DNA of 64,000 nucleotides, taken from assembly GCA_037576195.1 (NCBI GenBank), contig CM075101.1, forward strand, positions 2,914,001 through 2,978,000, read 5' to 3'. The DNA is from Phytoseiulus persimilis. Its lineage: Eukaryota; Arthropoda; Arachnida; Mesostigmata; Phytoseiidae. The translations under genes and the position numbers were made by a program. Shown one piece after another: positions 27,762 to 54,192 of this stretch. Below the pieces are notes generated by a model. The model worked only from the letters and a program-made list of their open reading frames with translations. It ran no database searches and was not told the origin of the DNA. The first letter of the stretch is position 1. Every line of letters begins with the position of its first letter.

Positions 27762-28222
27762 TGATAGGACTGGAAGTCGTAGGGTTTGAAGGTAGAGGAT
27801 CGAAGGTGTGGAACACTAGCTCAGTTGACAACAAGAGTGACAACGCAAGAGACGTGTAGAGTAGAAGGCTCTGTACCACAGTGAAGTTTATGCGAAAAGA
27901 GGGTCCTTATATACCTAGAAGGGGAGCGTAGCTCTCCCATGATTGGTCTAGAGTCCAGACACCAGATGAGTCACATCTTAACATAAGTTGACAGATGGTC
28001 TAGTTTGTAGGTCGGAGGGGTTGTAATCCCGACTCCGTACTCTTGGTTTTATGTGGACTGTCTGTATCAGTCCCTTACATCTGCTGTCGGGGTTGGAACC
28101 CCGATTTCGTTGCATTTCCCAGACGTCGTGACTTGGGAGTACTGTGAGTCATCTGAGTGTGTCATGCTCTCAGACGCGTGCGAGATCTGAGCCCGACAGG
28201 CTTCAGATTCTGATCTCCAACA
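27762..28222 (-). repeat. Copia-1 3' LTR
   Basis: On the minus strand the LTR starts TGTTGGAGATC and ends CCAGTCCTATCA. A TATA box (TATATAAGG) reads from 27913 to 27905. By eye it differs from the other LTR at a single base, 27892, where the minus strand has CATAAA instead of AATAAA. That hexamer, about 20 nt downstream of the TATA box, would be the element's polyadenylation signal. Confidence 0.9.
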
Positions 28223-29910: not shown

Positions 29911-30795
29911 TCAGACAGAACCACTGTGAGTGCTAGAACTGGACTCCGGCCAGTCGATTGGTTGAGCGCGTTTCAGCTCAATTTTCGTTTTCAGTAGCTG
30001 TGTTTTCAGCTCGTAATTCTCGTTAAGGAGATCGAGTGGTTGTTGTCGATCTTTAGAATTACTTTCGGATTGCTTTCTGTTGAGAGTTTCGAGTTGCTCA
30101 ATGTGATCAGTGTGATCACACAAGTATTTTGAGGCTGTTGATTCTTCTAGTTCGTTTTCGAGACGAGCAATTTTCTTTTGATAGAATGCGCGTCCGTCAT
30201 GCCAGTTTCCTCTGTCTCGATCATAGAGGCGCTGTTTAGCCTCTGATTCAGCGCGTAGATCGTAGATCTTTTGTTTGAGCATGCGGATCTCTGTCTCAGC
30301 GAGCTCAAGTTGACGAGCTTCTTCTGATTCGACAGGGTCATCCGCACCAGTTGGGATTGACGGGCTGTAGACTTCTTCGTCTAGATAGTCTGGATCTGCA
30401 TTTAGGTGGTCTGCCGATGCGGGCCGAGTGTCCTCAGGCGCAGGGTCTGTGGAGATTTCTGCTGAGGAGCTTTGCGATTTTCGTCGCAGGCATTCGACAG
30501 TGTTTTCTAGATCCGAAATTTTCTTTTGATTTGTGGCGCACTCGACGATTAGTGTTTCGGCATATTCTGCCGATGCGAGTGCAGGGGCCGTCAGTCTAGC
30601 GCGGCGTGCCGCGTTGTGGAGAAGTCTCGCTTTCTCGTTGAATTCAGGCGCGACTGCCTGTCCGTAGTAAAATCGGGATTGTTCATCCATTTGAGGCCAA
30701 AGGCGATATGACGCCTTCTGAGCAACATCGCGTGGAACGCGATGCAGATCCTGGAGTTCCAGTACGTGAATCCAGAAAGGTGACTGTTTGGGCAT
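29911..30795 (-). CDS. Copia-1 accessory ORF: HMG-box-like domain plus coiled coil
   Basis: The product is 294 residues from the ATG at 30795; the frame is open further upstream but without an ATG. Residues about 4-60 resemble an HMG box: an SPFWI start in the place of the usual NAF/Y, a run of small/hydrophobic residues, then LWPQMDEQSRFYYGQA, which matches the WxxMsxxEKxxYxxxA helix. The middle is acidic (DPDYLDEEV). The region from about residue 155 to 275 is a heptad-rich coiled coil (LAETEIRMLKQKIYDLRAE, IARLENELEE). HMG boxes bind or bend DNA, so a role in chromatin targeting is possible but is inference. A spliced 5' leader is likely (acceptor TTTTCCTTGGTTCCTTGGACGCAG ending at 30850). 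No such ORF is standard for Copia. Confidence 0.55.
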   Translation of the reverse strand: MPKQSPFWIHVLELQDLHRVPRDVAQKASYRLWPQMDEQSRFYYGQAVAPEFNEKARLLHNAARRARLTAPALASAEYAETLIVECATNQKKISDLENTVECLRRKSQSSSAEISTDPAPEDTRPASADHLNADPDYLDEEVYSPSIPTGADDPVESEEARQLELAETEIRMLKQKIYDLRAESEAKQRLYDRDRGNWHDGRAFYQKKIARLENELEESTASKYLCDHTDHIEQLETLNRKQSESNSKDRQQPLDLLNENYELKTQLLKTKIELKRAQPIDWPESSSSTHSGSV

Positions 30796-33711
30796 AGTGC
30801 AGGGATTGGGAGGTAAACCAAGCGATGGGATGCTAGCGGTCGGGGCGAACTGCGTCCAAGGAACCAAGGAAAAAAAAACACGAGGGACCTGGAGGTGTAC
30901 ATCAGGTTAATACCGTGATATTATGCCATGCCGAAGGAGAATCATGCGAGAGAAGTGGAAGAAGTGAATAGAGGCCGAAGAAGTGCGTTGAGAAACAGAG
31001 AGAGAAGAGATGCGTATGAACCACGCACAGCACAGCTAGGTGCCTCTCTCGGATACGTAACGAGGTTTCCGCTATCTGCTAAAGCTCGCTCACAGGGCGT
31101 CCTAGCGACCTGGGGGATGGATAGGCCGTCGCTCCCAGAGTAAGTAGGCGAACTTACTCGGACACAATTCAGAAGCGCGGAAGGGCGAGGTCGGACGGGT
31201 CTTGGGACGCTGGCTAGGGCAAGGACGGGACGCTGGGTCTTTGCACAATAATTCTCCGAGCGGAGCTGGGCGCTTCAACTCTAAAGCTAGGGCTGTTGGG
31301 TTGGAAGAAAGGGACGGGCGTGAGGGTCCACAATCCGACTCCACTGTCTTCGTCTCGTCGTCTCTTTTTTATTCAGTCTCTCCTCTCTCGCCTTACTCTC
31401 GCTCCCTACACGACTTTCTCGTTGAATTCAGGCGCGACTGCCTGTCCGTAGTAAAATCGGGATTGTTCATCCATTTGAGGCCAAAGGCGATATGACGCCT
31501 TCTGAGCAACATCGCGTGGAACGCGATGCAGATCCTGGAGTTCCAGTACGTGAATCCAGAAAGGTGACTGTTTGGGCATAGTGCAGGGATTGGGAGGTAA
31601 ACCAAGCGATGGGATGCTAGCGGTCGGGGCGAACTGCGTCCAAGGAACCAAGGAAAAAAAAACACGAGGGACCTGGAGGTGTACATCAGGTTAATACCGT
31701 GATATTATGCCATGCCGAAGGAGAATCATGCGAGAGAAGTGGAAGAAGTGAATAGAGGCCGAAGAAGTGCGTTGAGAAACAGAGAGAGAAGAGATGCGTA
31801 TGAACCACGCACAGCACAGCTAGGTGCCTCTCTCGGATACGTAACGAGGTTTCCGCTATCTGCTAAAGCTCGCTCACAGGGCGTCCTAGCGACCTGGGGG
31901 ATGGATAGGCCGTCGCTCCCAGAGTAAGTAGGCGAACTTACTCGGACACAATTCAGAAGCGCGGAAGGGCGAGGTCGGACGGGTCTTGGGACGCTGGCTA
32001 GGGCAAGGACGGGACGCTGGGTCTTTGCACAATAATTCTCCGAGCGGAGCTGGGCGCTTCAACTCTAAAGCTAGGGCTGTTGGGTTGGAAGAAAGGGACG
32101 GGCGTGAGGGTCCACAATCCGACTCCACTGTCTTCGTCTCGTCGTCTCTTTTTTATTCAGTCTCTCCTCTCTCGCCTTACTCTCGCTCCCTACACGACTT
32201 TCTCGTTGAATTCAGGCGCGACTGCCTGTCCGTAGTAAAATCGGGATTGTTCATCCATTTGAGGCCAAAGGCGATATGACGCCTTCTGAGCAACATCGCG
32301 TGGAACGCGATGCAGATCCTGGAGTTCCAGTACGTGAATCCAGAAAGGTGACTGTTTGGGCATAGTGCAGGGATTGGGAGGTAAACCAAGCGATGGGATG
32401 CTAGCGGTCGGGGCGAACTGCGTCCAAGGAACCAAGGAAAAAAAAACACGAGGGACCTGGAGGTGTACATCAGGTTAATACCGTGATATTATGCCATGCC
32501 GAAGGAGAATCATGCGAGAGAAGTGGAAGAAGTGAATAGAGGCCGAAGAAGTGCGTTGAGAAACAGAGAGAGAAGAGATGCGTATGAACCACGCACAGCA
32601 CAGCTAGGTGCCTCTCTCGGATACGTCGCAGATTCACGGCAGTTTGGAGGGCTATGGGAGAATTGAATTGAGCATTTCGAGTTGTTTGTGCTACCTAAGT
32701 TGCATGCTAGGACCGAATGGGTAAAATAGGAATGAAGTGCATCGGATAAATGAAATTAGGGTTGAGAGACGAGCTCCGTGGTTGGCATGTAGGGGCCATC
32801 AACTGCCGGGTTTGGCGATGGGTTCGCAAATGAATGATAGTTTCTACGCTTATCGTAGATCATGCAAAGGACCGTGATTCCGAGAAAGACGGCCAATGCG
32901 AGTATAGCGCCTGCACTTGCGAAAGCATAGTGCAGAAACCTGTTGTCAATGATGACAGGGGGAAGGACGGGGTAGTGTTGATCCCGGAATTCTTTCCAAA
33001 TTTGTTCGCCACCCACAGCAGGGAGAAGAGGCCTCAGACAGACCACGGACTCGGATGCCTCATTGTAGCATGCCGATGCTGAGCGTGTACAGGCGCATTG
33101 GAAACCGGTTGGTTTCTTGCTAATTGTACAGCTGATGTTTAATGAAACACAGGCGTCATCGCAGTCTTCGAAGCGAAAATAGTTCGGAGACGCGGATTGG
33201 ACAGAGAGAACGTAGAGCGTGAACACTATGAACAAGATTGTGGTAGCGGCCATGGTCGCAAGCCGATCAGTGTTCGGAGACGCTCGAAGATTGGTTTGTG
33301 AAGTGGTTTCGTCAGACCGTCACTGAGATTCTCTGTCGTCGGAATATTGTAACGAGGTTTCCGCTATCTGCTAAAGCTCGCTCACAGGGCGTCCTAGCGA
33401 CCTGGGGGATGGATAAGCCGTCGCTCCCAGAGTAAGTAGGCGAACTTACTCGGACACAATTCAGAAGCGCGGAAGGGCGAGGTCGGACGGGTCTTGGGAC
33501 GCTGGCTAGGGCAAGGACGGGACGCTGGGTCTTTGCACAATAATTCTCCGAGCGGAGCTGGGCGCTTCAACTCTAAAGCTAGGGCTGTTGGGTTGGAAGA
33601 AAGGGACGGGCGTGAGGGTCCACAATCCGACTCCACTGTCTTCGTCTCGTCGTCTCTTTTTTATTCAGTCTCTCCTCTCTCGCCTTACTCTCGCTCCCTA
33701 CACGACTTGCG
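30632..33711 (-). repeat. 784-bp tandem triplication between pol and the HMG-like ORF
   Basis: Three copies of one segment lie head to tail with identical-looking sequence: about 30635-31418, 31419-32202 and 32203-33711. The third (next to pol) contains a 722-bp block (32627-33348) that carries the envelope-like gene and is absent from the other two. Each unit holds the end of the preceding frame, an AATAAA on the minus strand, a consensus donor (GTAAGT at 31157, 31941 and 33449, reading leftwards) and the acceptor plus first 57 codons of the HMG-like ORF. Copies 2 and 3 end that ORF after the HMG-like part (31579-31406 and 32363-32190). The joints share only CTT. Confidence 0.85.
32756..33253 (-). 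CDS. Copia-1 envelope-like ORF: small Cys-rich type I membrane protein
   Basis: The 165-residue product starts at an ATG in a strong context (GCGACCATGG). Residues 1-21 are a signal peptide (hydrophobic, ending VQSAS). The ectodomain (22-109) has Cys at 31, 35, 42, 53, 55, 62 and 72 and an N-glycosylation sequon at 39-41. Residues about 110-132 form a transmembrane helix, followed by DKRR and a 30-residue Pro/Asn-rich tail. It lies just after pol, where retroviruses keep env, but is far too small for a fusion protein and no furin site or fusion peptide is visible. A decayed homologue with the same spacing C-x3-C-x6-C-x12/13-C-x6-C-x9-C occupies the same position in Copia-2. Function unknown; membrane display or secretion is inferred. 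Confidence 0.65.
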   Translation of the reverse strand: MAATTILFIVFTLYVLSVQSASPNYFRFEDCDDACVSLNISCTISKKPTGFQCACTRSASACYNEASESVVCLRPLLPAVGGEQIWKEFRDQHYPVLPPVIIDNRFLHYAFASAGAILALAVFLGITVLCMIYDKRRNYHSFANPSPNPAVDGPYMPTTELVSQP

Positions 33712-36700
33712 CACAGAATCGCTTGCATGTGACGTACATGTGGTCTCCGCTGACTGCTCTCTGGCTACCTGTCCAGATACGGTCGTCTTTGGAGTACCTC
33801 GACTGAATGTGGCTTCCTTGAGCTTCATGACAATATATCGATATTCGACTTGTTTACGTTCGTGTAGTTGACGGATGAAGAAGAATCTCGTGGAAATGTG
33901 TTTCGTGCGTTTGTGGAAGACTGGATTCTCTATGAGCTTTATCGCTCCAATGTTGTCCACGAAGATCACTGGACGAATAGTGATTCGTAATTCTTGGAAG
34001 AGTGTTCGAAGCCAGAGAGCAGACTTCGAGCAGTCAGTGACCGCTATGAACTCGCTCTCGGTGGAGGACAGTGAGACTGATCGTTGCTGTTGGGAAGACC
34101 ACAGGACTGGACCGCCGGCAAGTGTGACAAGTGAGCCACTTACCGAGCGTCGGGTCTGTTTACAAGCAGCAAAATCGGCGTCCGAATAAAGTTTAAGCGT
34201 TTCAGCTAGCAGAGTGGATGAGCTTCCGGAGTAAACAATTGACAGGTTGGGTGTCGCCTGCAAGTAACGCAGGATCTTCAGTGCTGCCTGCCAGTGTTGT
34301 TCTGAATAGTTCTCGAGGAAGCGAGCTAGGAAACCCACGGAGAAACAGACATCTGGTCGCGTACAGATAGATAAGAACATGAGAGCGCCAAGAAGTTGGG
34401 GATAAGGTCGATCTTCTGCGCGAGTTTCAGTTGTAGGCTCAATGTCGTATATTCCCGAGTCTGCGGGAATTGAGACGGGACGACAGTCCTCAAGATTGAA
34501 CCTTTTCAGGATGTTTTTGATGTACTTGTACTGGTTGAGCCAGATATTGTGATCGGAATCGATATGAATCTGAATGCCAAGGAAAAGACTCAGAGGAGAA
34601 GTCTTGAGTTTGAATGATTTTCCCAGTTTGGCAAGTGTATCTGTAATCAAGTGTTCATGCGTCGAGGCGATTAGCCCATCATCGACGTACACTGCTAGCA
34701 TCAGAAGTTCGCCATTTGAGCCGTGCCAGTAGAATAGGCAGTGATCGGCTTGGCTTTGAGTGAAGTTGAGATTCCGTAGAACATCTGCCAATTTTTGATT
34801 CCAGCATCGCGGAGCTTGTTTGAGCCCGTATAGACTTTTGTGCAACAGGCATACCCTGCCGGTGTCATCTGACCATCCGGGGGGTTGAGTCATCCAGATT
34901 TGTTCCTGGAAATCGCCATAGAGGAAGGCGGTGGTGACGTCAAATTGACGAAGTTTTAGACGCATTGATGCACTCGTAGCAAGCAAAACGCGGACAGTGT
35001 CCAGCCTGGCAACAGGGCTAAAGAGCTCCTGAAATTCTTGACCGGGAATTTGATTATAACCGCGAACAACGAGACGTGCACGGTATCGGTCTATTTCATT
35101 TTCAGCATTGGTTTTCCTGCGGAAGACCCAGCGACAAGTTACGGGTTTCTTGTTCTGTGGTGGGTCGACCAATGTCCAAACACCATGAGCTTTAAGTGCG
35201 GCCATTTCCTCAGCCATTGCTTCTTTCCAGTACTCTGCTTCTGGACTCGCAAGTGCCTGTGCAAGAGTCTGTGGCTCAGGTGAAGAGGGCGCTGCTAGCT
35301 GCACCTCTGTTTCGTAGCGCTTTGGCTTACGAAGATTCGTACAGCGTCGAAGGTTCATTTTCATTGGCTCCATTGGGGGTATCGTGATCGAGCGCGTAGC
35401 TGCAGAATCACTTTCGTCAGCCGAGTCAAATGCTCCAGGCGGAAAGAGCTCCTCGTCAGGATGCCGGTCCTCAACGATGCTATCGCAATCGGAGGAATCA
35501 TGCGCGTCCATAAAATCAGTGGCTTCATCGGCGGTTCCCAAACCGGGGACATGCGCTGCACTCTTTGGTGCCTTCCCCAAGAACCTGACGTCTTTGGTTT
35601 CCCTAATTGAGGGAGGAGAACCTGGGAGATACACACGAAAGCCGTCAACACGGTCGGTGTAACCGATCAGAAACGCGGGGATGCCGCGGTGTGTCCATTT
35701 GTCAGTTTCTCCTTCGTTGTAGATGAAGCAGGGGGAGCCGAAAGGGAGTAGATGAGAGATCTTTGGTTTCACTTTGTAGATTGTTTCGTACGGAGACTTG
35801 TTTGTCTGGGGACAAACGTCTACGATATTGAGAATGAAAACGGCACATCTGCAAGCTTCTGGCCACAAGAATTTCGGAAGTTTTGAATCAAGGAGCATGG
35901 TTCTAGCGAGTTTAGTGATAGTTTGATTTTGACGTTCAGCGCGGCCGTTCTGGGGAGAACAGGCAACATGGCTCATGACAAGCTCTGCGCCGATTGAAGC
36001 TAGAGAAGCTTTGACTTGAGCATTATTGAATTCTAGGCCGTGGTCACAGAAGAGTTGCTTGACTTGACCAGGAGTTGACATTGGACCACACAGATCGGTG
36101 GAAATGTATCCCAGGGACCGCGGTACAGCTGAATCGGGTTTCGAGCGATACGTCGCCCGATTCAGTTTTCCTTCAATACAGGCAGTGCAGGTGATCTGGT
36201 CCCTTTTGAAGGGAATCCCCTCTCGAGCTAAAAATTGCTGAACTTGGCGTTTATTAACGTGTCCAAGTGTTTCATGAGCACTCTGCAGAGTGACTGATTG
36301 TGACGATGAAAGCAAGCATTCGGCAGATATGGGAACCGTCACAGCTGTAGCTCGGAGGGCAAAAAGGCCGTCGTTCACTCGAACCCTGAGAGTAGCTGAG
36401 TCTCGGTTCAAGCGAAGGGTGGTCTTAGTGGCAGTAATTGACCAATTGTCATTCATCAGACAGGCCATCGACACGAGGTTTCGCCTCATTTCGGGCACGT
36501 AGAGAACCTCATGGAGATGTAAAAGAGTGTCTCCATTGGAGCCGTTCACAACAAGCAAGATCTCGCCCTCACCAAACGCTTGAAGTTGTTGGTGACCGCC
36601 GACTTTCACAGTACGGGGACAAGAGTATGCGAGATAATTTCGGAAAAGATCTAAATCATTGCAAATGTTGTGGGTTGCCCCAGAATCGATTAACCATACT

Positions 36701-37611
36701 GAGGAATCAAGATTGTTATGCGCAGCAGAGGCAATGTGAACCTCGACATCAGATCCGAAGGGATCGATTGTCTCAGCATCATAGGCTGTTGGGCGAGAAG
36801 TGCGCCTCTGATTCAGAGTTGGCTGGCGAGAGCGTGGGGGTTGGGTCGAAACACGAGGTCGAGGAGGTTGGCTTGATCGCCAAGCATTAGCGGGTGGAGC
36901 CTGAGTTGGATTGGAGGCGACTCTTCGATTTTGATTCGAGTTCTGGTAGCGAGCATTGGAGTTGGAGTTGTACGAGTTAGAATTGAAGCGGGAAGCGCGT
37001 TGAAAAGTATTTGAAGGACGTGATTGAGGTCGGTAAGAGGAGTTCTGATTACGACGATTGTCGTATTGAGGACGATTGTTGAAGTTGGGTCGTCTATTTG
37101 AGCGAATAGAGAGACGAGAGAACAAGGCGGTCGGATCCGCCTGGGAGGAGTTTTCACGTCGCATTGCTTCTTCACGGAGAAGAACGTAAAGGTTGGAAAG
37201 AGTCTGATCGGTTCCGGTTTTAACACTCCAGAACAAACGAAGACCTTCCCAGGACGAGGGCAAGCTTTGCAGGAGACGCTGGCATGCCTGTTGCTCGTCC
37301 ACCTTCGTGCCAGCAAGTGCGATGCGCTGCATAATTTGTTGGAAATTATCTATATTCTTCGTCGTAGATTTCGAAGAATTGTAGCGGAAGTTATAGAACG
37401 AGCTAAGAGCTATGTCTTGAGCGATACCGCTTGTTTGAGCAAAACGCTTCTTCAGTGCCTCATAGAGATCTTTCGCATTGAGATCTTGGGTAGAAATGCT
37501 GAAGTACGTGGCTATCAGAACGGGGGAGATTGAGTTAAGGATGATTGTTTTGGCCATGGCGTTCGCAGCTTCATAGCCGGTCGCTGTTATGACAAGATCG
37601 CCAGAAACAAC
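33685..37611 (-). CDS. gag-pol: Copia-1 Gag-Pol, main part
   Basis: With the 5' part at 45022-45243 this would be one frame of about 1382 codons. Order: gag (a UBN2-like region), a basic Asn/Arg/Ser-rich tail with no CCHC knuckle, protease (WLIDSGATHNI near 36690), pre-integrase motif (HETLGHVNKRQV, CTACIEGKLNRATYRSKP), integrase, reverse transcriptase (FDVTTAFLYGD, YVDDGL near 34690) and RNase H (YSDADFAAC, SSTESEFIA). Two oddities: the integrase core has only 17 residues between its first two acidic residues (STDLCGPM to CDHGLEF), where Copia-2 has 62, and the C-terminus after VEYRYI lacks the usual ADxLTK ending. The stop at 33685 is followed by AATAAA about 20 bp on. Polymerase looks intact; integrase is probably defective. 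Confidence 0.9.
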   Translation of the reverse strand, partial: VVSGDLVITATGYEAANAMAKTIILNSISPVLIATYFSISTQDLNAKDLYEALKKRFAQTSGIAQDIALSSFYNFRYNSSKSTTKNIDNFQQIMQRIALAGTKVDEQQACQRLLQSLPSSWEGLRLFWSVKTGTDQTLSNLYVLLREEAMRRENSSQADPTALFSRLSIRSNRRPNFNNRPQYDNRRNQNSSYRPQSRPSNTFQRASRFNSNSYNSNSNARYQNSNQNRRVASNPTQAPPANAWRSSQPPRPRVSTQPPRSRQPTLNQRRTSRPTAYDAETIDPFGSDVEVHIASAAHNNLDSSVWLIDSGATHNICNDLDLFRNYLAYSCPRTVKVGGHQQLQAFGEGEILLVVNGSNGDTLLHLHEVLYVPEMRRNLVSMACLMNDNWSITATKTTLRLNRDSATLRVRVNDGLFALRATAVTVPISAECLLSSSQSVTLQSAHETLGHVNKRQVQQFLAREGIPFKRDQITCTACIEGKLNRATYRSKPDSAVPRSLGYISTDLCGPMSTPGQVKQLFCDHGLEFNNAQVKASLASIGAELVMSHVACSPQNGRAERQNQTITKLARTMLLDSKLPKFLWPEACRCAVFILNIVDVCPQTNKSPYETIYKVKPKISHLLPFGSPCFIYNEGETDKWTHRGIPAFLIGYTDRVDGFRVYLPGSPPSIRETKDVRFLGKAPKSAAHVPGLGTADEATDFMDAHDSSDCDSIVEDRHPDEELFPPGAFDSADESDSAATRSITIPPMEPMKMNLRRCTNLRKPKRYETEVQLAAPSSPEPQTLAQALASPEAEYWKEAMAEEMAALKAHGVWTLVDPPQNKKPVTCRWVFRRKTNAENEIDRYRARLVVRGYNQIPGQEFQELFSPVARLDTVRVLLATSASMRLKLRQFDVTTAFLYGDFQEQIWMTQPPGWSDDTGRVCLLHKSLYGLKQAPRCWNQKLADVLRNLNFTQSQADHCLFYWHGSNGELLMLAVYVDDGLIASTHEHLITDTLAKLGKSFKLKTSPLSLFLGIQIHIDSDHNIWLNQYKYIKNILKRFNLEDCRPVSIPADSGIYDIEPTTETRAEDRPYPQLLGALMFLSICTRPDVCFSVGFLARFLENYSEQHWQAALKILRYLQATPNLSIVYSGSSSTLLAETLKLYSDADFAACKQTRRSVSGSLVTLAGGPVLWSSQQQRSVSLSSTESEFIAVTDCSKSALWLRTLFQELRITIRPVIFVDNIGAIKLIENPVFHKRTKHISTRFFFIRQLHERKQVEYRYIVMKLKEATFSRGTPKTTVSGQVAREQSAETTCTSHASDSVRKSCRERE

Positions 37612-37904
37612 TGTCACGCACTCGACAGAGTGCTTCAGGGTTTATTGATAAATACCGAATAAAGTACATCCTCAACTGTACGCCGCGTGCTGTTCTCTCC
37701 GTGCGACCGGCCCACTGCGCATGCGCCGGCAGTGGCGATGCCGGTGGGCGGCCGACAGTCGGTCGGCAGTCAGGTGTCTCACAGCGTTTGAGAGACAACG
37801 CACCGAGCACAAGAGAGAGCGGCCACGACGGCGTCTACAGGAGGATTCCAGATCCAGACCAGAGTATTCCCTCTTGTAGAGTAAGCCCAAACTGTGGCAT
37901 CACA
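37612..37904 (+). repeat. BEL 5' LTR
   Basis: TGTCACG...ATCACA, 293 bp, with AATAAA at about 37658. No difference from the LTR at 44724-45016 was seen. It contains a GC-rich inverted motif around 37716-37760. Confidence 0.95.
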
Positions 37905-38321
37905 TGGTGGCAGCGAGTTAAACGACCCCAGCCAGTCTCAAGAAGAAGCGTCAACCAGGATTCCAGATCCGCCGACTCAGACGGCGTGCCCTCGGACAGA
38001 GTTCGTCGCATTATTCAGTTCATCCAGACGGCCGAAGAGGGCAATCAGCTATCGAGGAGTCCTCACAGTCCTACGTGAGACTCGCAGCGGATATTTCGGG
38101 GAAATATCCAGGTTCCGACAACTTCAAAAGTGCTGCGTCAGCGAGGGCGTCCCTCACGCGCGCAACCCGCATTCAGTGTCCAGCGGCAGTGCTTCAAGTG
38201 CAACCACCCCAGGCGGCTGGATTTCATTACCAAGGCGAGTCCAGTTCGTTGATTTGCTATTCCGAGGCTCAACGCGCCGACACTGTAACGGCCGCGAGAG
38301 GTCCCGGAGTCAGTCTTGACG
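37905..38321 (+). promoter_or_regulatory. BEL primer-binding site and leader
   Basis: TGGTGGCAGCGAGT directly follows the LTR and begins with TGG, complementary to a tRNA CCA end. I cannot name the tRNA. The remaining 400 bp up to the gag ATG form the leader. ORFs here (37701-38319) are not supported. Confidence 0.55.
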
Positions 38322-41300
38322 ATGGCATCCACACCCTTGGAGGACGCCGATCAGCTCGAGCTGGATGCCGAGTCACAGCTCAGGTCCCGAGTCCCAACCG
38401 TCGAGGAACAGACAGAGTTCACCACATTGATCAAGGTGCGACGGAACGTCAGAACCAGATTCACGAAGAGAGCTAGGGACCTCGAGGCGAAGACGGAGGT
38501 TGAGGTGCCAGAGGAACAGATTGACGCGGAGTGGCAAGAATTCGATGACATCTACTCGGAGTTGCGCTCACTCAACTCCCAGATCACCCCGCTACTCGTC
38601 AAATGCGCCATCGCCCAATTCGACGACGCGATGGAGCGGGTTGCAGCTTACGACAAACAGTACGCTCGCACCGTAAGTTTCCTGAAGAAGAAAACGGCAG
38701 CAGCGCATGCGAGCCGGTCGAGGGAAGCACCAGATCATGGGCCGAAGATGCCAGCACCAACCCACGCGTGCCAGACTGCAAGCAGGCACTTCAAACTACC
38801 GAAGTTCAGGGGCGACTTAAAGAGGTTTCGGGAGTGGTGGCAACTCTTCAACGTCCATGTCCACAAGAGGGGGATGGACCCCATCGAGAAATTCACGCTA
38901 TTGAAGGAGGCGCTGCAAGGACCCCCATCCTTCGAGATCGCACACTTGGAATTCAGCCCGGACCAGTACGATGAAGCAGTCAGAATCATCGAAAAGAAGT
39001 TCGGATGCCAACGCGCGGCCGAAAAAGAGCATCTCCAGGAAATTCGGAAACTGTGTTCAGCCAGGGATCTGCACGCGAACGATAAGTTCTTCCGTTTTGT
39101 ATCCTCGCTGTCCCAGAACGTCAAGGCGCTGCTATCCTTGGGGAAGAGTTTCGAATCAATCTCCATGGCAGTCGCGCAGGACATCCTCAGATGCCTGCCC
39201 AGAGTAATGAGCGAAGAGTTCACGAGAAAGGATTTTGAAACCGTGACGGCGCCAGGCGGCTCGGACAGCGAGCTTAAATTACTTCTAGAGTACCTAGAGA
39301 GAGAGGTAGAGATCAAACGATCCTGCGGTCCGTCGGCTCAGCCGGGACCAAGCAGTCCCCACAGTTCCCGCTTCGGTAGGGATTTCAGCTCTAGCGATAA
39401 AGACAGGCAATTTCACTCAAAACCGGGTAACTGGAAAGGTAGTCAACACGAGCCAGGCAGGGGCACCGTTGGATTTCTCGCAAAGGACGCAGCAGTAGAC
39501 CACTCTTGCATATTTTGCTCCAGCCCGAAACACGAGTCAAAATCGTGTAGAAAATCATTATCGTATGAAGAAAAGAAGGAACTTTGCGACAAAAACAGCG
39601 CGTGTTTCAAATGCCTCAGGCGCAACCATTTCGCGAAAAAATGCAGGGCTAGAAATGTCAAGTGCGAAAGGTGCAACCGAGGGCATTACGCGATAATGTG
39701 CAACGCCGACAGAGCAACGGGGCAGCAAACAGAGGCACTCTCAACCCAGATAGACACGGGCAAACTCAAAAGGACGCCGAAGGGTCTAGTTTTCTTTCAG
39801 ACCGGTCTAGTTTGGGTGAACTGCCCTTCAGGCAGACAAGTGTTTAGATTCTTCCTGGACTCGGGGTCAGAGCGGTCTTACGTATCAGAGCATGTCGTCA
39901 GGGCTCTCGGATTAAAACCCGTATACCAGGAAAGCCTGGCAATGGTCACGATAGGCGGAAACGTATCCAGCTTCAAGAAGCACAACGTGTACCGCATCGG
40001 GCTTCAAAGCAGATTCAACAGCGAGATGGCAGTGGAACTCGAGGCGACAGAACTTCCAGAAATAGCCCGGGGACACTTCCCGGTGTCGCCGGAATCGTGG
40101 AACCTCGCTCCATTGGCGGACCACGGCGAGAACATAGGAAGGCGTGAGATAGACGTTCTCTTGGGCTGGGATATCATACCGAAAATTAAGTGCGGAACGG
40201 AGCGCGTTTCCGAAAACAGAATGGTCGCGAACGAAACCATCTCCGGCTGGATAGTGGCGGGAATGGACGAGTCGCGGAACAGAGGCGCGCAGTCGCAGGT
40301 CTTCGTGACAGCAAATTTGTACCAGCCAGGTACCAGACTAAGATCAGCACAAGTTGTCAGTATGGCAACAGCAACAGCGGTTAGCACACCGGAAATCGGC
40401 ACAGCACCGACTACATCCAGTCCAGCGGTATTGGGTTCAGCCGAAGACGCGCAGTCGAAGACCGCCGACAGGTCAGCATTCCATGAGGAAATCAAAGCCG
40501 ATCTACAGCTTCTGTGGTCAACAGAATTGCTGGGGATCGAAGATCCAGGCCAGGAGTCGGGCGACGCGGTTGAGGCAGAACTACAAAATTTTTTCAAAAA
40601 TAATCTGGAGAGGCTAGAAGAAGGCCGATACATGGTCAGTCTCCCTTTCAAAGAGAATCTGAGAACGCTGGGGGACAACGAGAATATCGCGCGAGGCAGT
40701 TTAAAGAGATTTCTACTCAAGGCTTCCAAAGACAGAGAACTCCTCGCGGCAGTAGATGAAGAGATGAGTCGGTACATAGGGAAAGGCTATGCGGAATTAG
40801 CATCACCGAAAAGGCCGGGCGAACTAGTTCATTATCTCCCGATTCTGCCGGTGGTCAAGAGAGACCCAGAGAAGAAGCTTCTAAAGGTCAGAGTCGTGAA
40901 GGACGCGGGCGCGCGCAGAAAAGACGAGGCAGCGCTCAACGACGTTCTCCACGATGGTCCAAACCTATTGCCGGACATTTTCAAGGTCCTGTTGAGATTC
41001 AGAAGGGATGAGATCGCGGTGGTGTCGGACATTGAAAAAGCATTCCTGCAATACAGGATCCGCCCCGACCACCGCACTTTCTTGAGATTTTTTTGGGCCC
41101 CGGGAATTAGCAGCGATCCGCGGGCGCCGATCAAGGAGTTTTGGAGCACGACGCTCGACTTCGGGACATCGGCGTCGCCATTCATTCATTGCGCCGGGTT
41201 GACGTACCACATCAGACACCTCGCGCAACAACACCCAGACAAAGTGCATTTTCTCAAAGACTTAGAACAACATTTCTACATGGACGATCTGGTCTTCACA

Positions 41301-43870
41301 ATAGATTCAGAAAACGAAGGCGCGGAGTGTTTCAAGTTCAGTTTCAAGGCGTTCCAGACGGGAGGCTTCAGGCTGCGGAAATGGGCAACAAATAGTTCAG
41401 CGTTAGGTCGAGAGATAGAAAGATCGCTCAGCGACCCAGATGTTCAGGTCTCCTTCGATCAAGAGGATTTCAAATTCCTAGGAATAGGTTGGAACCAGAA
41501 AACAGATCAGCTTCACATAGACGTCGCGCCGGCGATAGAAACACTAGAAGCAAGCATTCCGTCGAAGAGAACCATATTGAAGGGCACAGCACAGATTTTC
41601 GATCCCTTCGGTCTCATTTCTCCGCTCACGGTCAGACCCAAAATACTGCTACAAACATGCTGGAAACAAAAACTCGATTGGAACACAGAGCTGACAGGAG
41701 ACACTCGCAGAGAATTCTTAGAAACTACAGACGCGCTCAAACACGCACGGGAATTTCGCATACAACGGAACATAAACACAAACGAGCGCGACGTCACCCG
41801 AGAACTGCACGTGTTCTGCGACGCGAGCCTGTCGGCACTCGGATGTGTGGCATACATCAGAGAGATGTCGAAACGCGGCGCCGCGCAGATCTTTTTCGTC
41901 GCCTCAAAGGCGAGAGTAGTTCCAATAAAGTCGACCTACTCGATTCATAAGTTAGAGCTCGTCGGGGCAGTCATGGCGGCCAGAATGGGGTCGAGGATTA
42001 AGCAGTATCTCAATTATCATTTCGAGGCGACCCATTACTGGTCCGACAACTCCCCGACGCTACACTGGATCAAAGAGTCGCCGGACAGACTGAAAGTTTT
42101 CGTAGCGAATAGAGTGAGAGAAATTCAATCCCTGACAGCGGCGCCGGAGTGGGACTACGTCACCTCCGCGCAGAACCCGGCCGACCTGTTGAGTCGCGGA
42201 GCAAACATCGCGTCAGAGGAATACAGTTCCATGTGGCTTAAAGGGCCGAGTTGGCTGGCAGAGAAAGGGCGGCCATCAGAAAGGCACTCACTGAACAAGT
42301 TCTTCGAAAGCGAAATAGAGTCAGAAAGGAAAGCGATCAGCATGTTGACGGTAGAGCGAAATCAGTCAATATTGGAGGGCTCCCGATTATCATCTTGGAG
42401 CGTACTGGTCAACTCCACGGCGCGAATCCTCAGGTGGCTTGCAAGCCGATACTCGCCAGCGAGACAATCCCCGCGGGATGCTCCGGTTTCAGCAACCGAG
42501 GCATGGAGAGCAACAGTCAAAGTAATCCAAAGTCTTCAAAAAAGCCAGTTTAGGGCAGAGCTAGAGTCAGACTGTAAGGAAATCCAGAAAGAAAGCAAGC
42601 TGTTCAAATTGACACCGTTCCTGGATGCCGAGGGATTAATTAGGTGTCGTTCCAGATTGGAACGCGGCGAAGAGCGGGTATACGATGAAAAGTACCCAAT
42701 CGTGCTCCAAGGGGAAGCGCACGCCGTTAGACTGCTCATCAGGTTTTTCCATGAGGAAAAATGTTTCCACGTAGGCGGAGTCGCGGCAACATTGAGCATG
42801 TTAAGGAAGAAATACTTCATCCTCGCGGCGCGCAAGGCAGTCAAAGCAGTCCTCAAAGACTGTAAAGTTTGCATGTTATTCCGGATCGAAGCGGCAGCGG
42901 AGCCAGCGCCCCCGATTCCGAATTTCAGGCTGTCAACAGCCCCTCCATTCACGGTTTGCGGAGTAGATCACGCGGGACCAATCAGCTATCGTCTCCCAAG
43001 CGGAGATCTCGCCAAGTCGTACATACTGCTATTCGTGTGCTCGAATACGAGAGCAGTCCAGTTGCAATTGGTTCCAGACCTGTCAGCATACGAATTCTTG
43101 CTGGCATTGAGAAAATTCTTGAGCCGATTCAGCGGAACCACCAGAATCATGTCCGACAACGGGCTCGCGTTCGTTAGAGCAGCCAAGGAGCTGAAGATCA
43201 TCTTCGAGCACGTCAAGTCGCCAGCCGTTCAGCACCACCTGGCTTCCGCAGAGATAGAATGGGAATTTATCACAGCCAGGGCCCCCTGGCAGGGCGGATG
43301 GTGGGAACGCTTGGTGCAGTGCGTAAAAAACCACTTAGGAAGATCTTGGGCAAAAACTCGTTACCGTTCCGGGAGCTGGAGACAATCTTGGCAGAAGTGG
43401 AGGCGATGGTCAACCAGAGACCGCTCACGGCAGTTCAGGGCGACCTCAACGAAGTTGGCGCTCTCTGCCCAGCGGATCTCCTCTACGGCTACAGAGCCAA
43501 ACAGGGTCTCCCGGAAACTAAGTTAAAAGCGAACGACCGCGAAGCGGCGACAGCAATAGTCTACTCAAAGCGTTGGGAACACCAGCGGTCAATTCTGCGC
43601 GCGCTGTGGAAACGGTTCCGGGGAGAGTATCTGTCCTACCTACGTTCCGCGCACATTCGGCCACCGGAGGCTCGCAGACCGATAGCGGTAGGCGACGTTT
43701 GCCTCCTTAAGGACGCAAATCCTTCGCGAGCACACTGGCCGTTGTGTCGCGTTCTTGGTCTGTCCGGCGGGGAGAGAACGGATCGACGCAAGCGATCCTG
43801 TCTAATCAAGACGGCCACAGGCCAAACTCTAAATCGACCAATACAGCTACTATTCCCACTGGAAGTCTAA
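38322..43870 (+). CDS. gag-pol: BEL Gag-Pol polyprotein, one frameshift in integrase
   Basis: ATG at 38322; the frame is open for over 5 kb. Approximate residues: 155-300 DUF1759-type gag (LPKFRGDLKRFREWW), 425-460 zinc knuckles (CFKCLRRNHFAKKC and CERCNRGHYAIMC), 512 protease (FFLDSGSERSYVS), 900-990 reverse transcriptase (VSDIEKAF, YMDDLVF), 1160-1260 RNase H (FCDASLSALGC, HKLELVGAVMAA), 1480-1530 integrase HHCC finger, 1547-1660 integrase core (GVDHAGP, MSDNGLAF, PWQGGWWERLV). In an A6 run at 43324-43329 the frame shifts; the continuation (RKKPLRKILGK onward to DUF5641-like SRAHWPLCRV) is in the next frame to 43870. One extra A would restore the frame, so this copy is one base from intact, or the base is an assembly error. 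Confidence 0.92.
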
Positions 43871-43983
43871 TCGGGTGAGCTGCGGCAGAAGAGGGAAGAA
43901 CGATGTCAGTTATACAAGGAAAAGACGGCCTTCCAAAAGGAAAAATCGAGTATATTTCGGAATCACCAGAGACATATTACAAA
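43871..43983. other. BEL pol 3' flank
   Basis: A short purine-rich stretch after the pol stop (AGAGGGAAGAACGATG; CCAAAAGGAAAAATCGAG) with no separate gene. It ends where the antisense ORF stops. Confidence 0.4.
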
Positions 43984-44415
43984 TCAGACAAAGGGGGACA
44001 GGTGGCGGCTGCGCGCCAGCCCCATCTCGAACGCGTTGGTCTGAGTGCCCACCTCCTTGGAGGGACACTCTGGGGTGGAGGAGCTCTCCGGGGCGGGGGT
44101 CTCGGCGGATTGTGGGGGCACCGCTCCAGGCGGCCCGCTGGACGGGCCCACCTCTCGCAGGTCCGCCACCGCGGCGTGGACGGCATCGACGAGCACGGAC
44201 GGGACGTGCAGTGGGGGCGGGTTCCGCGTTCCGCGGCGTCGGGCGACGGTGGCACTCACGTAGAAGGGCTGGCGGGTTTCCGGTGTGGCATTGTCCCACA
44301 CGCGTCTCGCGGCGGCCCGGAGGTGGGCATACGGGGTCCGGGCGAAGTGTCCGGACACGGACAACGAAACAACCAAGACGCCCAACGGGCTGCGCTCGAA
44401 ACTCGATAGAGACAT
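43984..44415 (-). CDS. BEL antisense ORF, GC3-rich, unknown function
   Basis: On the strand opposite to gag-pol, an ATG at 44415 opens 143 codons ending at 43984 (TGA). Codon third positions are strongly G/C (runs such as GCC CAC CTC CGG GCC GCC GCG), and the product looks like a real protein: an amphipathic HLRAAARRVWDNA region, FYVSATVARRRG, then a Pro/Ser-rich tail with CPSKEVGTQ. It has no signal peptide, membrane helix or recognised domain. Overlapping plus-strand ORFs across the same bases show less orderly codon use. It lies between pol and the 3' LTR, where some retroelements keep antisense or accessory genes. It may be captured host sequence. Confidence 0.4.
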   Translation of the reverse strand: MSLSSFERSPLGVLVVSLSVSGHFARTPYAHLRAAARRVWDNATPETRQPFYVSATVARRRGTRNPPPLHVPSVLVDAVHAAVADLREVGPSSGPPGAVPPQSAETPAPESSSTPECPSKEVGTQTNAFEMGLARSRHLSPFV

Positions 44416-44723
44416 CGCGTGGTGCAGGGTCACAAAACGACTCGGGGAATGATTTCGGAAGTTCGGAAAAGCCAGAGTTTCAGTCCGTGGGAAAGGGAAA
44501 ATGTCGGTGTCCTCTCAGAATTGGCGAGATTTCCGTCTCGTTAAGGCTCACCCCGTGTCGGGTTCAAGACCTCAATCGCTCGAATTTCGGAAGTCTCGGT
44601 TGCACCACGCGCTAGTTCTAGATACTCAAATTCTCAAGTTCCGGTCGACCATCTCGGGTCACCAAAATGTGTCAAAAGTGCTCTAGGCAGGAAACCAGTG
44701 TAAATTGAGAATTTGGCCGGGAG
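44416..44723. other. BEL 3' untranslated region
   Basis: No credible ORF. The sequence just before the 3' LTR (GGCCGGGAG) is a poor polypurine tract; a better purine run was not found within 50 bp. Confidence 0.4.
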
Positions 44724-45016
44724 TGTCACGCACTCGACAGAGTGCTTCAGGGTTTATTGATAAATACCGAATAAAGTACATCCTCAACTGTACGCCGCGT
44801 GCTGTTCTCTCCGTGCGACCGGCCCACTGCGCATGCGCCGGCAGTGGCGATGCCGGTGGGCGGCCGACAGTCGGTCGGCAGTCAGGTGTCTCACAGCGTT
44901 TGAGAGACAACGCACCGAGCACAAGAGAGAGCGGCCACGACGGCGTCTACAGGAGGATTCCAGATCCAGACCAGAGTATTCCCTCTTGTAGAGTAAGCCC
45001 AAACTGTGGCATCACA
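44724..45016 (+). repeat. BEL 3' LTR
   Basis: A 293-bp copy of 37612-37904, followed by the target duplication ACAAC (45017-45021). Confidence 0.95.
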
Positions 45017-45021
45017 ACAAC

Positions 45022-45243
45022 TTTGTAGGCGTCACCGCTGTTTTGCAGGACCACGGTGACCAGTGAAGACCACGCGAGCCAGTTTCTGCCATCATCAGCC
45101 AATGTGATGCTGCATGCATGATTGGATTTTGAGCCAGATCCGCTTGCGGAAGAGGAGTCAGCCATCACTCTCTCTTCAGGAGACTCTAGGAGCTCGTAAT
45201 CGTCAAGATTAAACGAAGCTTCGGTCTCTGGAGCACTTTGCAT
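45022..45243 (-). CDS. gag-pol: Copia-1 Gag N-terminal part, separated by the BEL insertion
   Basis: ATG at 45243 (CGCCCATGC context) opens 74 codons up to the BEL target duplication. The sequence is acidic at first (NLDDYELLESPEE) and includes the Copia gag motif ITLADDGRNWLAW. Skipping BEL and one copy of ACAAC continues at 37611 in the same frame. This shows that gag was intact when BEL arrived and that BEL is the only break in the gene. Confidence 0.85.
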
Positions 45244-45381: not shown

Positions 45382-45842
45382 TGATAGGACTGGAAGTCGT
45401 AGGGTTTGAAGGTAGAGGATCGAAGGTGTGGAACACTAGCTCAGTTGACAACAAGAGTGACAACGCAAGAGACGTGTAGAGTAGAAGGCTCTGTACCACA
45501 GTGAAGTTTATTCGAAAAGAGGGTCCTTATATACCTAGAAGGGGAGCGTAGCTCTCCCATGATTGGTCTAGAGTCCAGACACCAGATGAGTCACATCTTA
45601 ACATAAGTTGACAGATGGTCTAGTTTGTAGGTCGGAGGGGTTGTAATCCCGACTCCGTACTCTTGGTTTTATGTGGACTGTCTGTATCAGTCCCTTACAT
45701 CTGCTGTCGGGGTTGGAACCCCGATTTCGTTGCATTTCCCAGACGTCGTGACTTGGGAGTACTGTGAGTCATCTGAGTGTGTCATGCTCTCAGACGCGTG
45801 CGAGATCTGAGCCCGACAGGCTTCAGATTCTGATCTCCAACA
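45382..45842 (-). repeat. Copia-1 5' LTR
   Basis: A 461-bp copy of 27762-28222 with one visible difference (45512). Here the minus strand reads AATAAA at the presumed polyadenylation signal, next to the TATA box TATATAAGG. The target duplication AGATA follows at 45843-45847. Confidence 0.9.
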
Positions 45843-47370: not shown

Positions 47371-47475
47371 AAAAAAACCCGAAAAAAGAGGAGAAAATAA
47401 GCCTGGGAAAGGCTGTGAGAGTGCGTAAAGTTGCAGAATCGTACCAGGAACGAGGAGGTAAGAAATAATACCAAA

Positions 47476-48645
47476 ATGCCTCAGTTCACATGTGCCCCAT
47501 GCGAAAACAGCGTGCGGGAAGCCGAGAAGGCGGCAGGCCAGAATTGTGCCTACTGTGTCTGGAAGCAGAATTTGCTTCGAGATGCAAACCTTCAGGTAGC
47601 CGCTATGGCGGAACAGATTAGGAAACTTGAGGAAGACCTGAGAAAACAGGTCAGGCTCACCGCCGAGGCAGTAGAAGCCCGCGGTCAAGCCCTCAACCAA
47701 CTAGCCGTAGAATTGACACGGCGCTCGGGCGCGGAACAGACAGCACCGACAGACTCGCAGAATAGCGAGGAAATGGAGCAAGGCGAGATCAATACGGATC
47801 CAACGTCATGCGCCTACCTGATTGGAGAAGAATATCTCGAAGCAATCAATCAGGAGAGAATATTGACAGGCATGCTGGGAAAGAAGTGTGTCCTGAGAGC
47901 TAGGCCTACATTGGTCGCCGCGCACTTCGAAGTAGCAGAAAAGCTACTGAACGAAGGTGACGCAGATTACTACCACATATTCCTGGAAATTGGGATGTGT
48001 AATATCAAAGATGCAGAATTTAGGCCTTGGAAAGGTAAAGACCTGGCGGAAGACATAATCAGGGGGATAGAAAACATCCTAGCTAACCCTAAAGTGATTT
48101 CCCTCACATGGATGAGTTTACCGGAAAAAGGTGAAACACTAGAACCCGCCAGAGTGGTCAACCGACTAGTGGAAAAGTGGCTCGAAAGAGAGCCAAATAA
48201 ATGCAGCCTCTTCAATATGAGAGGCCTTTATTTCAATAACACTCTATTCCACAATGAACGCCTCACCAGAAACGGTGTAATCGAGACTGGAAAACGAATA
48301 GTCTCGTGGTATATGGAAGCGTTGAAGCTCGGAAAAAAAGAGCAAGAGGAGCTCCGAGCAAATATGCGAAGAGCGAAAGCTAAGGTCCTCGAAAAAGAGG
48401 AAGAGAATAAAAGAGAAGCCTTCGGCAGAATAGCCAGAGGCACAGACCATCCCGGTAGAGGGAGAGGCTCCACCCGGGGGAATGGTCGAGGCCGCGAAAT
48501 AGCGGACCTCGACATATATCAATTCCAGGCATGCCCCCCTCCCCCCCCCCCCCCCCACCCAGCAGAGGGAAATGCCACAATGGGCGAGGGGAACAAGAGG
48601 AAGGGCGAGAAACCAGCCCTACAACCCTGCACCATCGCGACATGA
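47476..48645 (+). CDS. LINE ORF1, intact-looking, function unassigned
   Basis: From ATG at 47476 the product is 389 residues. The N-terminus has paired cysteines (CAPC and, after 14 residues, CAYC), then a coiled coil (MAEQIRKLEEDLRKQ...). The middle is a soluble-looking domain with LVAAHFEVAEKLLNEGDADY and LARMF-like helices. The C-terminus is Arg/Gly-rich (GRGRGSTRGNGRGRE), then a proline run encoded by a C-rich tract near 48535. ORF1 proteins of LINEs bind RNA as multimers; the coiled coil and basic tail fit this. No PHD or RRM was recognised. The frame is free of stops although ORF2 is broken. Confidence 0.6.
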   Translation: MPQFTCAPCENSVREAEKAAGQNCAYCVWKQNLLRDANLQVAAMAEQIRKLEEDLRKQVRLTAEAVEARGQALNQLAVELTRRSGAEQTAPTDSQNSEEMEQGEINTDPTSCAYLIGEEYLEAINQERILTGMLGKKCVLRARPTLVAAHFEVAEKLLNEGDADYYHIFLEIGMCNIKDAEFRPWKGKDLAEDIIRGIENILANPKVISLTWMSLPEKGETLEPARVVNRLVEKWLEREPNKCSLFNMRGLYFNNTLFHNERLTRNGVIETGKRIVSWYMEALKLGKKEQEELRANMRRAKAKVLEKEEENKREAFGRIARGTDHPGRGRGSTRGNGRGREIADLDIYQFQACPPPPPPPHPAEGNATMGEGNKRKGEKPALQPCTIAT

Positions 48646-53400: not shown

Positions 53401-53760
53401 AGCCAGGCATTGAGAAGCTCGATCTGGGTGACCAAGTTGCTCAGTGAGCTGGGTATAAATGGAACCCATACGATCAGAATCGATAATTAAGCAGCCATAA
53501 AAATAGCTCAGAATGCAAACCTGCACAGGCGGTCTGAACACATTGCACTGAAAGAGCTTCTGGTTCGTGATCACTACCAGAAAGGCAATATCAAAATAGA
53601 ATACGTTAGCACTCGATATCAAAAGGCAGACATCCTAACGAAGGCTGTAACAGGACCCAGATTACAGGAACTCATCAGATTGACAGGACTATCAACTTGG
53701 AACCATGAAAGGGCAACTATTCCTCACAACGATAGCTATGGCTATCGGGCTCTCGAGTGA
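50490..53760 (+). pseudogene. Copia-2 integrase, reverse transcriptase and RNase H, decayed
   Basis: The pre-integrase motif (HKLFAHINKASLKKLL, CLECVQVKQIRSSYHSRP) and the integrase core (TGDLCST to FMSDHE, 62 residues apart) occupy 50760-51150. The third acidic residue is in the next frame (QQNGIAERSHRT near 51235). The reverse transcriptase begins near 52262 (WIFRLKTDPQ), has MASAFAYATLEE in place of the usual DVxxAFLxG, breaks near 52650 and keeps YVDDISV near 52770. RNase H follows after a stop at 53050, with several stops, to ADILTKAVTGPRLQELI (about 53625-53680). It is inactive but longer than Copia-1 in the integrase core and has the canonical C-terminus Copia-1 lacks. Confidence 0.8.
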
Positions 53761-54192
53761 AACTTTGACTATGGCAGCTGCCCGGGTGAGTGTCAAAAGA
53801 ATCACCACAGCTGTTTGGTAGAGCTTGGTGGACACGAAAGCTTCAATCACGAATGCATGGAATGGGAGTACGAATGCGAAAGGCATGCCAGCGATACGGC
53901 AGCGTGCGTGAATGAGGATAGACCTACGGTGGCGGGTTTGGAGGCATAGAGGATATTCAAGAAACACAGACCATCGCCACCGCAGCCAGGACCACAGCCT
54001 TTGCCTGAAGGCTTGTGCTTAACCTGGAAAATTTCAAGTATGATTCAATGTGGACTTACAGTACTAATAATTATATCCTACTGTGTACAAAAGATCACAG
54101 CATACATCAAGAACAGAAGGTATGACCGACTTCCGAGCTCTGATCCAAATAACCCCTACAGAGAGACAGTACAAGATGTCCTAGAGAACTAG
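53705..54192 (+). pseudogene. Copia-2 envelope-like ORF, decayed homologue of 32756-33253
   Basis: ATG at 53705 (AACCATGA) overlaps the end of pol in another frame and opens a signal-peptide-like stretch (MKGQLFLTTIAMAIGL). A shift then moves to the frame of 53761-53949, which has six Cys spaced C-x3-C-x6-C-x13-C-x6-C-x9-C, matching the Copia-1 protein. An in-frame TAG at 53947 precedes a Pro-rich stalk, then a transmembrane helix (CGLTVLIIISYCV, about 54046-54090), basic residues KNRR and a polar tail with DPNNPY ending at 54192. Total length corresponds to about 162 residues against 165 in Copia-1. One shift and one stop disable it. Role unknown. Confidence 0.65.

What the first reader, a model, noticed from the sequence alone, without database searches (positions are those of the whole stretch)
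32756..33253. Conserved envelope-like Cys-rich membrane protein after pol in two different Copia elements
Copia-1 (32756-33253) and Copia-2 (53705-54192) each have, directly after pol, an ORF of about 165 and 162 residues with a signal peptide, six matching cysteines (C-x3-C-x6-C-x12/13-C-x6-C-x9-C), a stalk with prolines, one transmembrane helix, a basic stop-transfer patch and a short polar tail. The two pol proteins are clearly different, so the shared ORF has outlived substantial divergence. Envelope-like ORFs are known in plant Copia elements such as SIRE1, but a small Cys-rich type I protein like this in animal Copia is not one I know. It could mediate membrane association, particle release or cell-to-cell passage.
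Basis: partly seen in the sequence, partly recalled or inferred. Interest (0 to 1): 0.88.

Follow-up and report, generated by a model that had tools for sequence, protein, structure and literature searches.

The report
Envelope-like gene in animal Copia elements
A clade of Copia jumping genes in this animal genome carries an extra, conserved gene for a small cysteine-rich membrane protein, which suggests that these elements, usually thought to stay inside one cell, have or had a step at the cell surface.

Summary
The ORF at 32756-33253 (minus strand) is real: intact, 165 aa, between pol and the 3' LTR of a young Copia element. The second one (Copia-2, 53705-54192, plus strand) is a broken relic in this window, but the 6 other copies that cover it are intact. 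The protein belongs to a large family in this genome: 12 families and 75 intact copies among 98 places examined, with about 25% identity between the most distant of six families compared. They share a signal-peptide-like N-terminus, a six-cysteine ectodomain (median 89 residues) with GGxxIW, a proline-rich stalk, one TM helix, basic residues and a PYxxT tail. In typical copies of all 12 families the start codon lies between 74 nt before and 2 nt after the pol stop. dN/dS is 0.30-0.72 by group, and omega = 1 fits worse in four of four sets tested. ORF and pol diverge together; bearers form one RT clade, and seven sampled loci of other Copia lineages lack the gene. No significant Pfam, PDB or viral-structure match. 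The ICTV profile names only plant Sireviruses as env bearers. So this is a new, old, selected envelope-like gene of animal Copia, unlike sORF2/FAST and class I Env. Action at the plasma membrane is inferred, not shown.

The parts
32756..33253 (-). Copia-1 envelope-like ORF, 165 aa: signal-peptide-like helix, 6-Cys ectodomain, GGEQIW, stalk, TM, basic patch, YHSF, PYMPT tail
33685..37611 (-). Copia-1 gag-pol, distal part (Retrotran_gag_2, Pol_BBD, RVT_2)
45018..45243 (-). Copia-1 gag N-terminal piece, cut off from the rest by the BEL/Pao insertion
45382..45842 (-). Copia-1 5' LTR (461 bp; 99.8% identical to the 3' LTR; target-site duplication AGATA)
27762..28222 (-). Copia-1 3' LTR
30630..33708 (-). 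784-bp tandem array: two units lack the envelope-like ORF (about 722 bp deleted), the third holds it; it displaces the ORF from the pol stop in this copy
29911..30795 (-). Copia-1 further ORF downstream of the envelope-like ORF, 294 aa from its first ATG, hydrophilic, weak coiled-coil-type match
53705..54192 (+). Copia-2 envelope-like ORF, broken in the window by a frameshift and an internal stop; open in the 6 other copies that cover it
37612..45016 (+). BEL/Pao element nested in Copia-1 gag (LTRs 37612-37904 and 44724-45016)

Best explanation
Shown: one clade of Copia (Pseudoviridae-type) elements in this animal genome carries a third gene, placed at or overlapping the pol stop. It encodes a protein (156-206 aa in 75 intact copies) with the layout of a type I membrane protein: hydrophobic N-terminus, compact six-Cys ectodomain, proline-rich stalk, single TM helix, basic patch and a short tail with a nearly fixed PYxxT motif. 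The gene has diverged together with pol and is kept by purifying selection. Inferred: it enters the ER, forms three disulfides, is often N-glycosylated and reaches the plasma membrane. Its tail contacts the sorting machinery or Gag, and its ectodomain acts at the outer face so that Copia particles leave the cell or pass between touching cells, for example soma to germline. It would do the job of an Env or of sORF2 with an unrelated protein.
For: Family: 150 scored matches in the genome for P0001, 146 for a second family's protein. Of 75 intact copies (71 distinct), 68 show the six-Cys spacing, 70 GGxx[hydrophobic]W, 70 PYxx[T/P], 72 a basic patch after the TM, and 74 a hydrophobic N-terminus. 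Invariant in a 19-row alignment: C42 F51 C55 C62 C72 G82 W86 P154 Y155. Position: pol and ORF overlap or abut in 12 of 12 families. Selection: pooled pairwise dN/dS 0.33 (Copia-1) and 0.30 (METV), 7 of 8 diverged pairs have dN/dS below 1 at P below 0.02 (best L047-L063, 0.133, P 1.7e-14). The free codon model beats the omega-1 model in 4 of 4 sets. Co-inheritance: pol-ORF identity Spearman 0.72 over 15 family pairs; ORF bearers lie on one side of an RT-tree branch, support 96/94. Fold: ectodomain model pLDDT 90.5. The window's Copia-1 LTRs are 99.8% identical, so the insertion is probably recent.
Against: No expression, localisation or function data. No hydrophobic fusion-peptide-like 15-mer inside the ectodomain and no RxK/RR site in 75 of 75 copies, so nothing points to a classical fusogen. 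A membrane protein could equally act on the host or inside the cell. Pseudovirids are described as having no extracellular phase. The YxxPhi tail motif is not universal: 2 of 8 public homologues have it strictly. dN/dS is 0.5-0.72 in six of nine groups, and one of eight tested pairs is not significant (L074-L076, P 0.32). No signal-peptide or TM predictor was available, only hydropathy and the AlphaFold helices.
Confidence: 0.55

Rival explanations
1. Host-manipulating surface protein: the ectodomain binds a host receptor or immune component, or blocks re-infection by kin, and plays no part in particle passage.
For: A small, compact, variable Cys-rich ectodomain with a strongly kept tail would also suit a decoy or interference protein. 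No fusogen-like segment was found.
Against: Linkage to pol in all 12 families and co-divergence with pol suggest a part in the element's own cycle, though this does not exclude the rival.
Confidence: 0.2
2. Intracellular anchor: it ties Gag or particles to ER, Golgi or endosomal membranes for assembly or transport, without any surface role.
For: The tail motif is as well kept as the ectodomain motifs (PYxx[T/P] in 70 of 75), and tyrosine-based tails are typical of sorting (recalled).
Against: A folded six-Cys ectodomain, with sequons in 7 of 9 family representatives, is more than an anchor needs.
Confidence: 0.15
3. sORF2/FAST-like fusogen of the kind reported for Drosophila MDG1-group elements.
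For: Same genomic idea: a small single-pass membrane protein with a basic patch after the TM (72 of 75) and an aromatic residue near it. In 7 of 22 Lepidoptera consensus sequences sORF2 also lies after pol (PMC11952523).
Against: Those proteins are 63-107 aa, with an ectodomain of about 30 residues and a myristoylation motif used to find them. Here length is 156-206, ectodomain 84-109 and MG start 0 of 75, with six cysteines and a signal-peptide-like start.
Confidence: 0.08
4. Chance or relic ORF without function.
For: An ORF of this length arises in 42 of 300 random sequences; many copies are broken.
Against: Homology across 12 families, dN/dS below 1, and fixed cysteines and motifs.
Confidence: 0.02

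Closest known systems
Plant Sirevirus envelope-like ORF (e.g. SIRE1)
   Different: Sireviruses are plant-restricted. This one is in an animal genome, is small and Cys-rich and overlaps or abuts the pol end. No sequence comparison with a Sirevirus protein was run here.
sORF2 of MDG1-group (Metaviridae) elements, and reoviral FAST proteins
   Same: Small single-pass membrane protein of an LTR element, basic patch after the TM, proposed passage between cells
   Different: sORF2-like proteins are 63-107 aa with about 30 ectodomain residues and an N-myristoylation motif, mostly upstream of gag, in Gypsy-type elements. Here 156-206 aa, signal-peptide-like start, six-Cys ectodomain, after pol, in Copia.
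Class I Env-type glycoprotein, e.g. of rotifer TelKA elements
   Same: Membrane protein gene (ORF3) downstream of pol
   Different: TelKA Env is about 600 aa with protease site, fusion peptide and coiled coil (PMC5408684, passages seen). Protease site and fusion peptide were looked for and not found here; coiled coil not tested.
Short ORF3s of bdelloid rotifer LTR elements (Vesta4, Vesta6c)
   Same: Short ORF3 (210-230 aa) with TM segments; Vesta4 with cysteines
   [quoted passage not shown] Sequences were not compared here.

Membership tests
Copia / Pseudoviridae element (the bearer) | RVT_2 reverse transcriptase, Copia-type gag and Pol_BBD domains, LTRs with target-site duplication | tested here: met
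   RVT_2 5.8e-71, Retrotran_gag_2 4e-14, Pol_BBD 2e-18; LTR pair and AGATA duplication
Sirevirus | plant host, third ORF after gag-pol | tested here: not met
   Third ORF present, but the genome holds a BEL/Pao element; the ICTV profile calls that family metazoan (start of abstract in the listing), so the host is an animal. Species not identified.
sORF2/FAST-like proteins | 63-107 aa, ectodomain about 30 residues | tested here: not met
   length 156-206, ectodomain 84-109 in 75 of 75
sORF2/FAST-like proteins | N-terminal myristoylation motif MGxxxS/T (search criterion) | tested here: not met
   0 of 75 begin MG
sORF2/FAST-like proteins | polybasic patch after the TM | tested here: met
   three or more K/R in the 20 residues there in 72 of 75
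Class I viral fusion glycoprotein (Env) | furin-type site and hydrophobic fusion peptide | tested here: not met
   no RxK/RR site and no hydrophobic 15-mer in the ectodomain in 75 of 75
Class I viral fusion glycoprotein (Env) | trimeric coiled coil | not tested
   no coiled-coil predictor was run
Any Pfam, NCBIfam or PDB family | significant sequence match | tested here: not met
   Pfam: none; best E 0.015, at most 2 of 19 members per family; Viral_cys_rich in 3 of 32 members, best E 0.2. NCBIfam best E 0.034, one member each. PDB sequences: P0001 best E 0.5, profile 0 matches
Any known fold | structural match | tested here: inconclusive
Membrane glycoprotein acting between cells | surface location and need for transfer | not testable with these tools
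   needs experiments

The most novel reading that the evidence does not exclude
Animal Copia elements have an 'errantivirus-like' lineage of their own. One clade acquired, once and long ago, a glycoprotein gene of a fold not yet recognised, and uses it to move between cells, independently of plant Sireviruses and of Gypsy-type env or sORF2 elements.
Probability: 0.4. Interest if true: 0.9.

Novelty: new variant of a known kind. Interest (0 to 1): 0.74.

Why it matters
The current ICTV profile describes Pseudoviridae as intracellular, non-infectious particles (its table adds that virions 'might be enveloped') and names only plant Sireviruses as bearers of an env ORF; a 2013 review calls Sirevirus the only genus with a putative env-like gene. 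A selected membrane-protein gene in an animal Copia clade challenges that picture and adds a candidate third route, besides Env and sORF2, by which LTR elements might reach the germline. It also supplies a new small protein family with a confident predicted ectodomain, 71 distinct natural variants in hand and sharp conserved motifs, so the question is directly testable.

Tried and rejected
Kazal-like or PAN-like ectodomain (spacings compared from memory): not supported. Pfam scans of 19 and 32 members gave no Kazal match, and PAN_3 for one member only at E 0.26. Splicing as the cause of the ORF-less tandem units: the deletion borders are not GT-AG and share about 2 nt. A splice acceptor before the ORF start: some families have CAG directly before ATG, others ACC-ATG, so undecided. 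Plasmid records and viral contigs: no relative; bacterial and archaeal genome contigs and metagenome contigs were not scanned. The codon program did not print omega, so I rely on the likelihood difference between the free run and the run in which I asked for omega 1, and on the pairwise counts.

Full report
WHAT IS THERE. The window is C1:2914001-2978000 of a 181-Mb, 127-contig assembly. The Copia-1 element is on the minus strand. Its LTRs are 27762-28222 and 45382-45842 (461 bp, 99.8% identical, target-site duplication AGATA). It sits just upstream of the gag of Copia-2, which is on the plus strand. A BEL/Pao element (37612-45016) is nested in Copia-1's gag. The ICTV profile calls BEL/Pao elements metazoan (start of abstract in the listing), so the host is an animal; the species was not identified. 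The flagged ORF, 32756-33253 minus, is intact at 165 aa. The Copia-2 counterpart at 53705-54192 plus is a relic with a frameshift and an internal stop.

THE WINDOW COPY IS ATYPICAL. A 784-bp tandem array (30630-33708) separates pol and ORF by 431 nt. Two of its units lack the ORF through a deletion of about 722 bp without GT-AG borders. In other copies the ORF start overlaps the end of pol: by 28 nt in 17 of 25 Copia-1 rows, plus three rows (L002, L038, L040) whose pol frame ends at the same place; by 56 nt in 18 of 24 METV rows; by 22 nt in 7 of 7 MAFT rows; by 65 nt in 4 of 5 MIQF rows; by 56-65 nt in 6 of 6 Copia-2 rows; and by 13 nt in L086. The other rows give other distances, mostly where a frame is broken early. 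Families held with short flanks show overlaps of 13, 22, 68, 71 and 74 nt or a 2-nt gap in their unbroken copies. So in 12 of 12 families pol and ORF overlap or abut. Family labels (METV, MAFT and so on) are mine, from the first residues.

A LARGE FAMILY. P0001 finds 150 scored matches in the genome (169 candidates), from 100% down to 22% identity. A second family's protein finds 146 at E 0.001. Sampling: the top 30 rows came as loci; 14 fragment rows after them were left out; of the next 42 rows I fetched 40 (L047-L086); of the last 64 I picked 20 representatives (L087-L106). With the loci this makes 106 loci, 8 of them repeats of the same place, so 98 places. Of these, 75 hold an intact ORF of 156-206 aa (71 distinct), 12 are truncated or fused, 9 lack the motif or a start, and 2 (L009, the window's Copia-2 relic, and L016, a fragment) were not used. 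The sample leans towards full-length matches, so 75 of 98 is not a rate of survival. Of the 75, six-Cys spacing is kept in 68, GGxx[hydrophobic]W in 70, PYxx[T/P] in 70, a basic patch in 72, a hydrophobic N-terminus in 74, and a TM hydropathy above 1.6 in 68; YxxPhi somewhere after the TM is found in 75, by a lenient window. Read at the aligned position, all 16 genome rows of alignment A1 have Y-x-x-[LIMFV], but P0002 and P0003 have YxxY and P0004 lacks it, and P0007-P0009 have F in place of Y.

SELECTION AND INHERITANCE. Pooled pairwise dN/dS of intact copies is 0.33 for Copia-1 (21 copies), 0.30 METV (14), 0.31 MIQF (5), 0.50-0.60 in MAFT, MAS, MQLK, MWSF and Copia-2, and 0.72 in a single MND pair. 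Drift after insertion should push these values up. One search took the pairs with most synonymous change and stopped with an error in the third of nine groups: of 8 pairs finished, 7 have P below 0.02 (L047-L063: 0.133, P 1.7e-14) and one has P 0.32. The ORF value is below that of pol in 4 of the 5 pairs where pol could be compared. Against a run in which omega was set to 1 on the same tree, log-likelihoods of the free model are better by 14.1, 23.7, 68.5 and 66.5 in the four sets tested; MAFT and Copia-2 were not in these sets. Identities of pol and ORF across 15 pairs of six families correlate (Spearman 0.72, P 0.003; the pairs are not independent). Among the best 150 RVT_2 matches (of 443 candidates), 94 have the ORF within 2.5 kb downstream and 56 do not; with an open frame of 500 aa or more and no stop it is 67 against 25. 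I fetched 10 of those 25 and did not read the other 15. Two carry a broken ORF (L110, L113), and in L115 similarity to its relative ends about 30 nt inside the ORF. Seven belong to other Copia lineages with no such ORF in the roughly 750 nt held after pol. In the RT tree of 22 rows the bearers, with these three, form one side of a branch with support 96/94. This fits one acquisition followed by vertical descent; the sample is small, the tree is unrooted, and the program warned of long branches (L082, L112, L116, and L086 with L014).

RELATIVES ELSEWHERE. Three searches of 5.8 billion proteins gave eight homologues (P0002-P0009), all unnamed, from sources marked 'ena' or 'lgn'. All eight keep GG...W and PYxxT by eye; P0004 begins after the first two cysteines. 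Whether they come from other species is not stated; none is closer than 54% to the window's protein.

LITERATURE. The ICTV Pseudoviridae profile (whole text) says that these viruses lack an extracellular phase and that Sirevirus carries the env ORF. PMC3599292 (passages) calls Sirevirus the only such genus. PMC11952523 (outline, sections 7, 8, 10, 12 and passages) describes sORF2 in MDG1-group elements; its screen of consensus sequences was of Metaviridae. PMC5408684 (passages) describes rotifer ORF3s. In PMC3587641 and PMC8556966 the passages found were about 'environment' only, and those of PMC2774666 named no animal Copia env. Nine paper searches (two of them without any hit) listed no report of such a gene; subscription journals and Repbase were not available, so a prior mention cannot be excluded.

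HOW IT PROBABLY WORKS. The overlap with pol implies a downstream cistron reached by reinitiation or a spliced RNA (undecided; purine at -3 in 56 of 75 starts). The protein would enter the ER, fold through its cysteines and, in 7 of 9 family representatives checked, could carry N-glycans (sequons). The PYxxT motif stands out in an otherwise variable tail, which I read as binding to Gag or to sorting adaptors. Surface action in egress or cell-to-cell passage is my leading inference (about 0.55); host manipulation and intracellular anchoring are live rivals.

Noticed in passing
window 29911-30795 (-): Copia-1 copies carry another ORF, in most about 390 nt downstream of the envelope-like ORF: 294 aa, hydrophilic, weak TPR_MLP1_2 match (E 0.0048). 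Intact at 294 aa in 6 of 21 held stretches, dN/dS 0.36 over 28 pairs (8 frames, two of them shorter), and a 64%-identical open copy at C3:29591515-29592453.
   Followed up: partly
window 30630-33708: Tandem 784-bp units repeat the last bases of pol and the first part (81 codons from the TTG) of the downstream ORF, with the envelope-like ORF deleted from two units. Rows at C3:16540983-16551850 may be a similar array.
   Followed up: partly
window 47431-50151 (+): Two long ORFs (404 and 309 aa) interrupt Copia-2 between Pol_BBD and integrase; they look like a non-LTR retroelement (by eye; the first has no Pfam match).
   Followed up: no
window 62407-63417 (-): Non-LTR-type RVT_1 reverse transcriptase fragment, 336 aa (type by eye).
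   Followed up: no
window 59717-62397 (+): Broken Gypsy-like gag-pol pieces (zinc knuckle and RT motifs by eye).
   Followed up: no
C1:53116300, C2:28304700, C2:2268078: Weak partial matches to the envelope-like protein with no Copia RT near them in the capped RT list; could be decayed or solitary copies. Not read.
   Followed up: no
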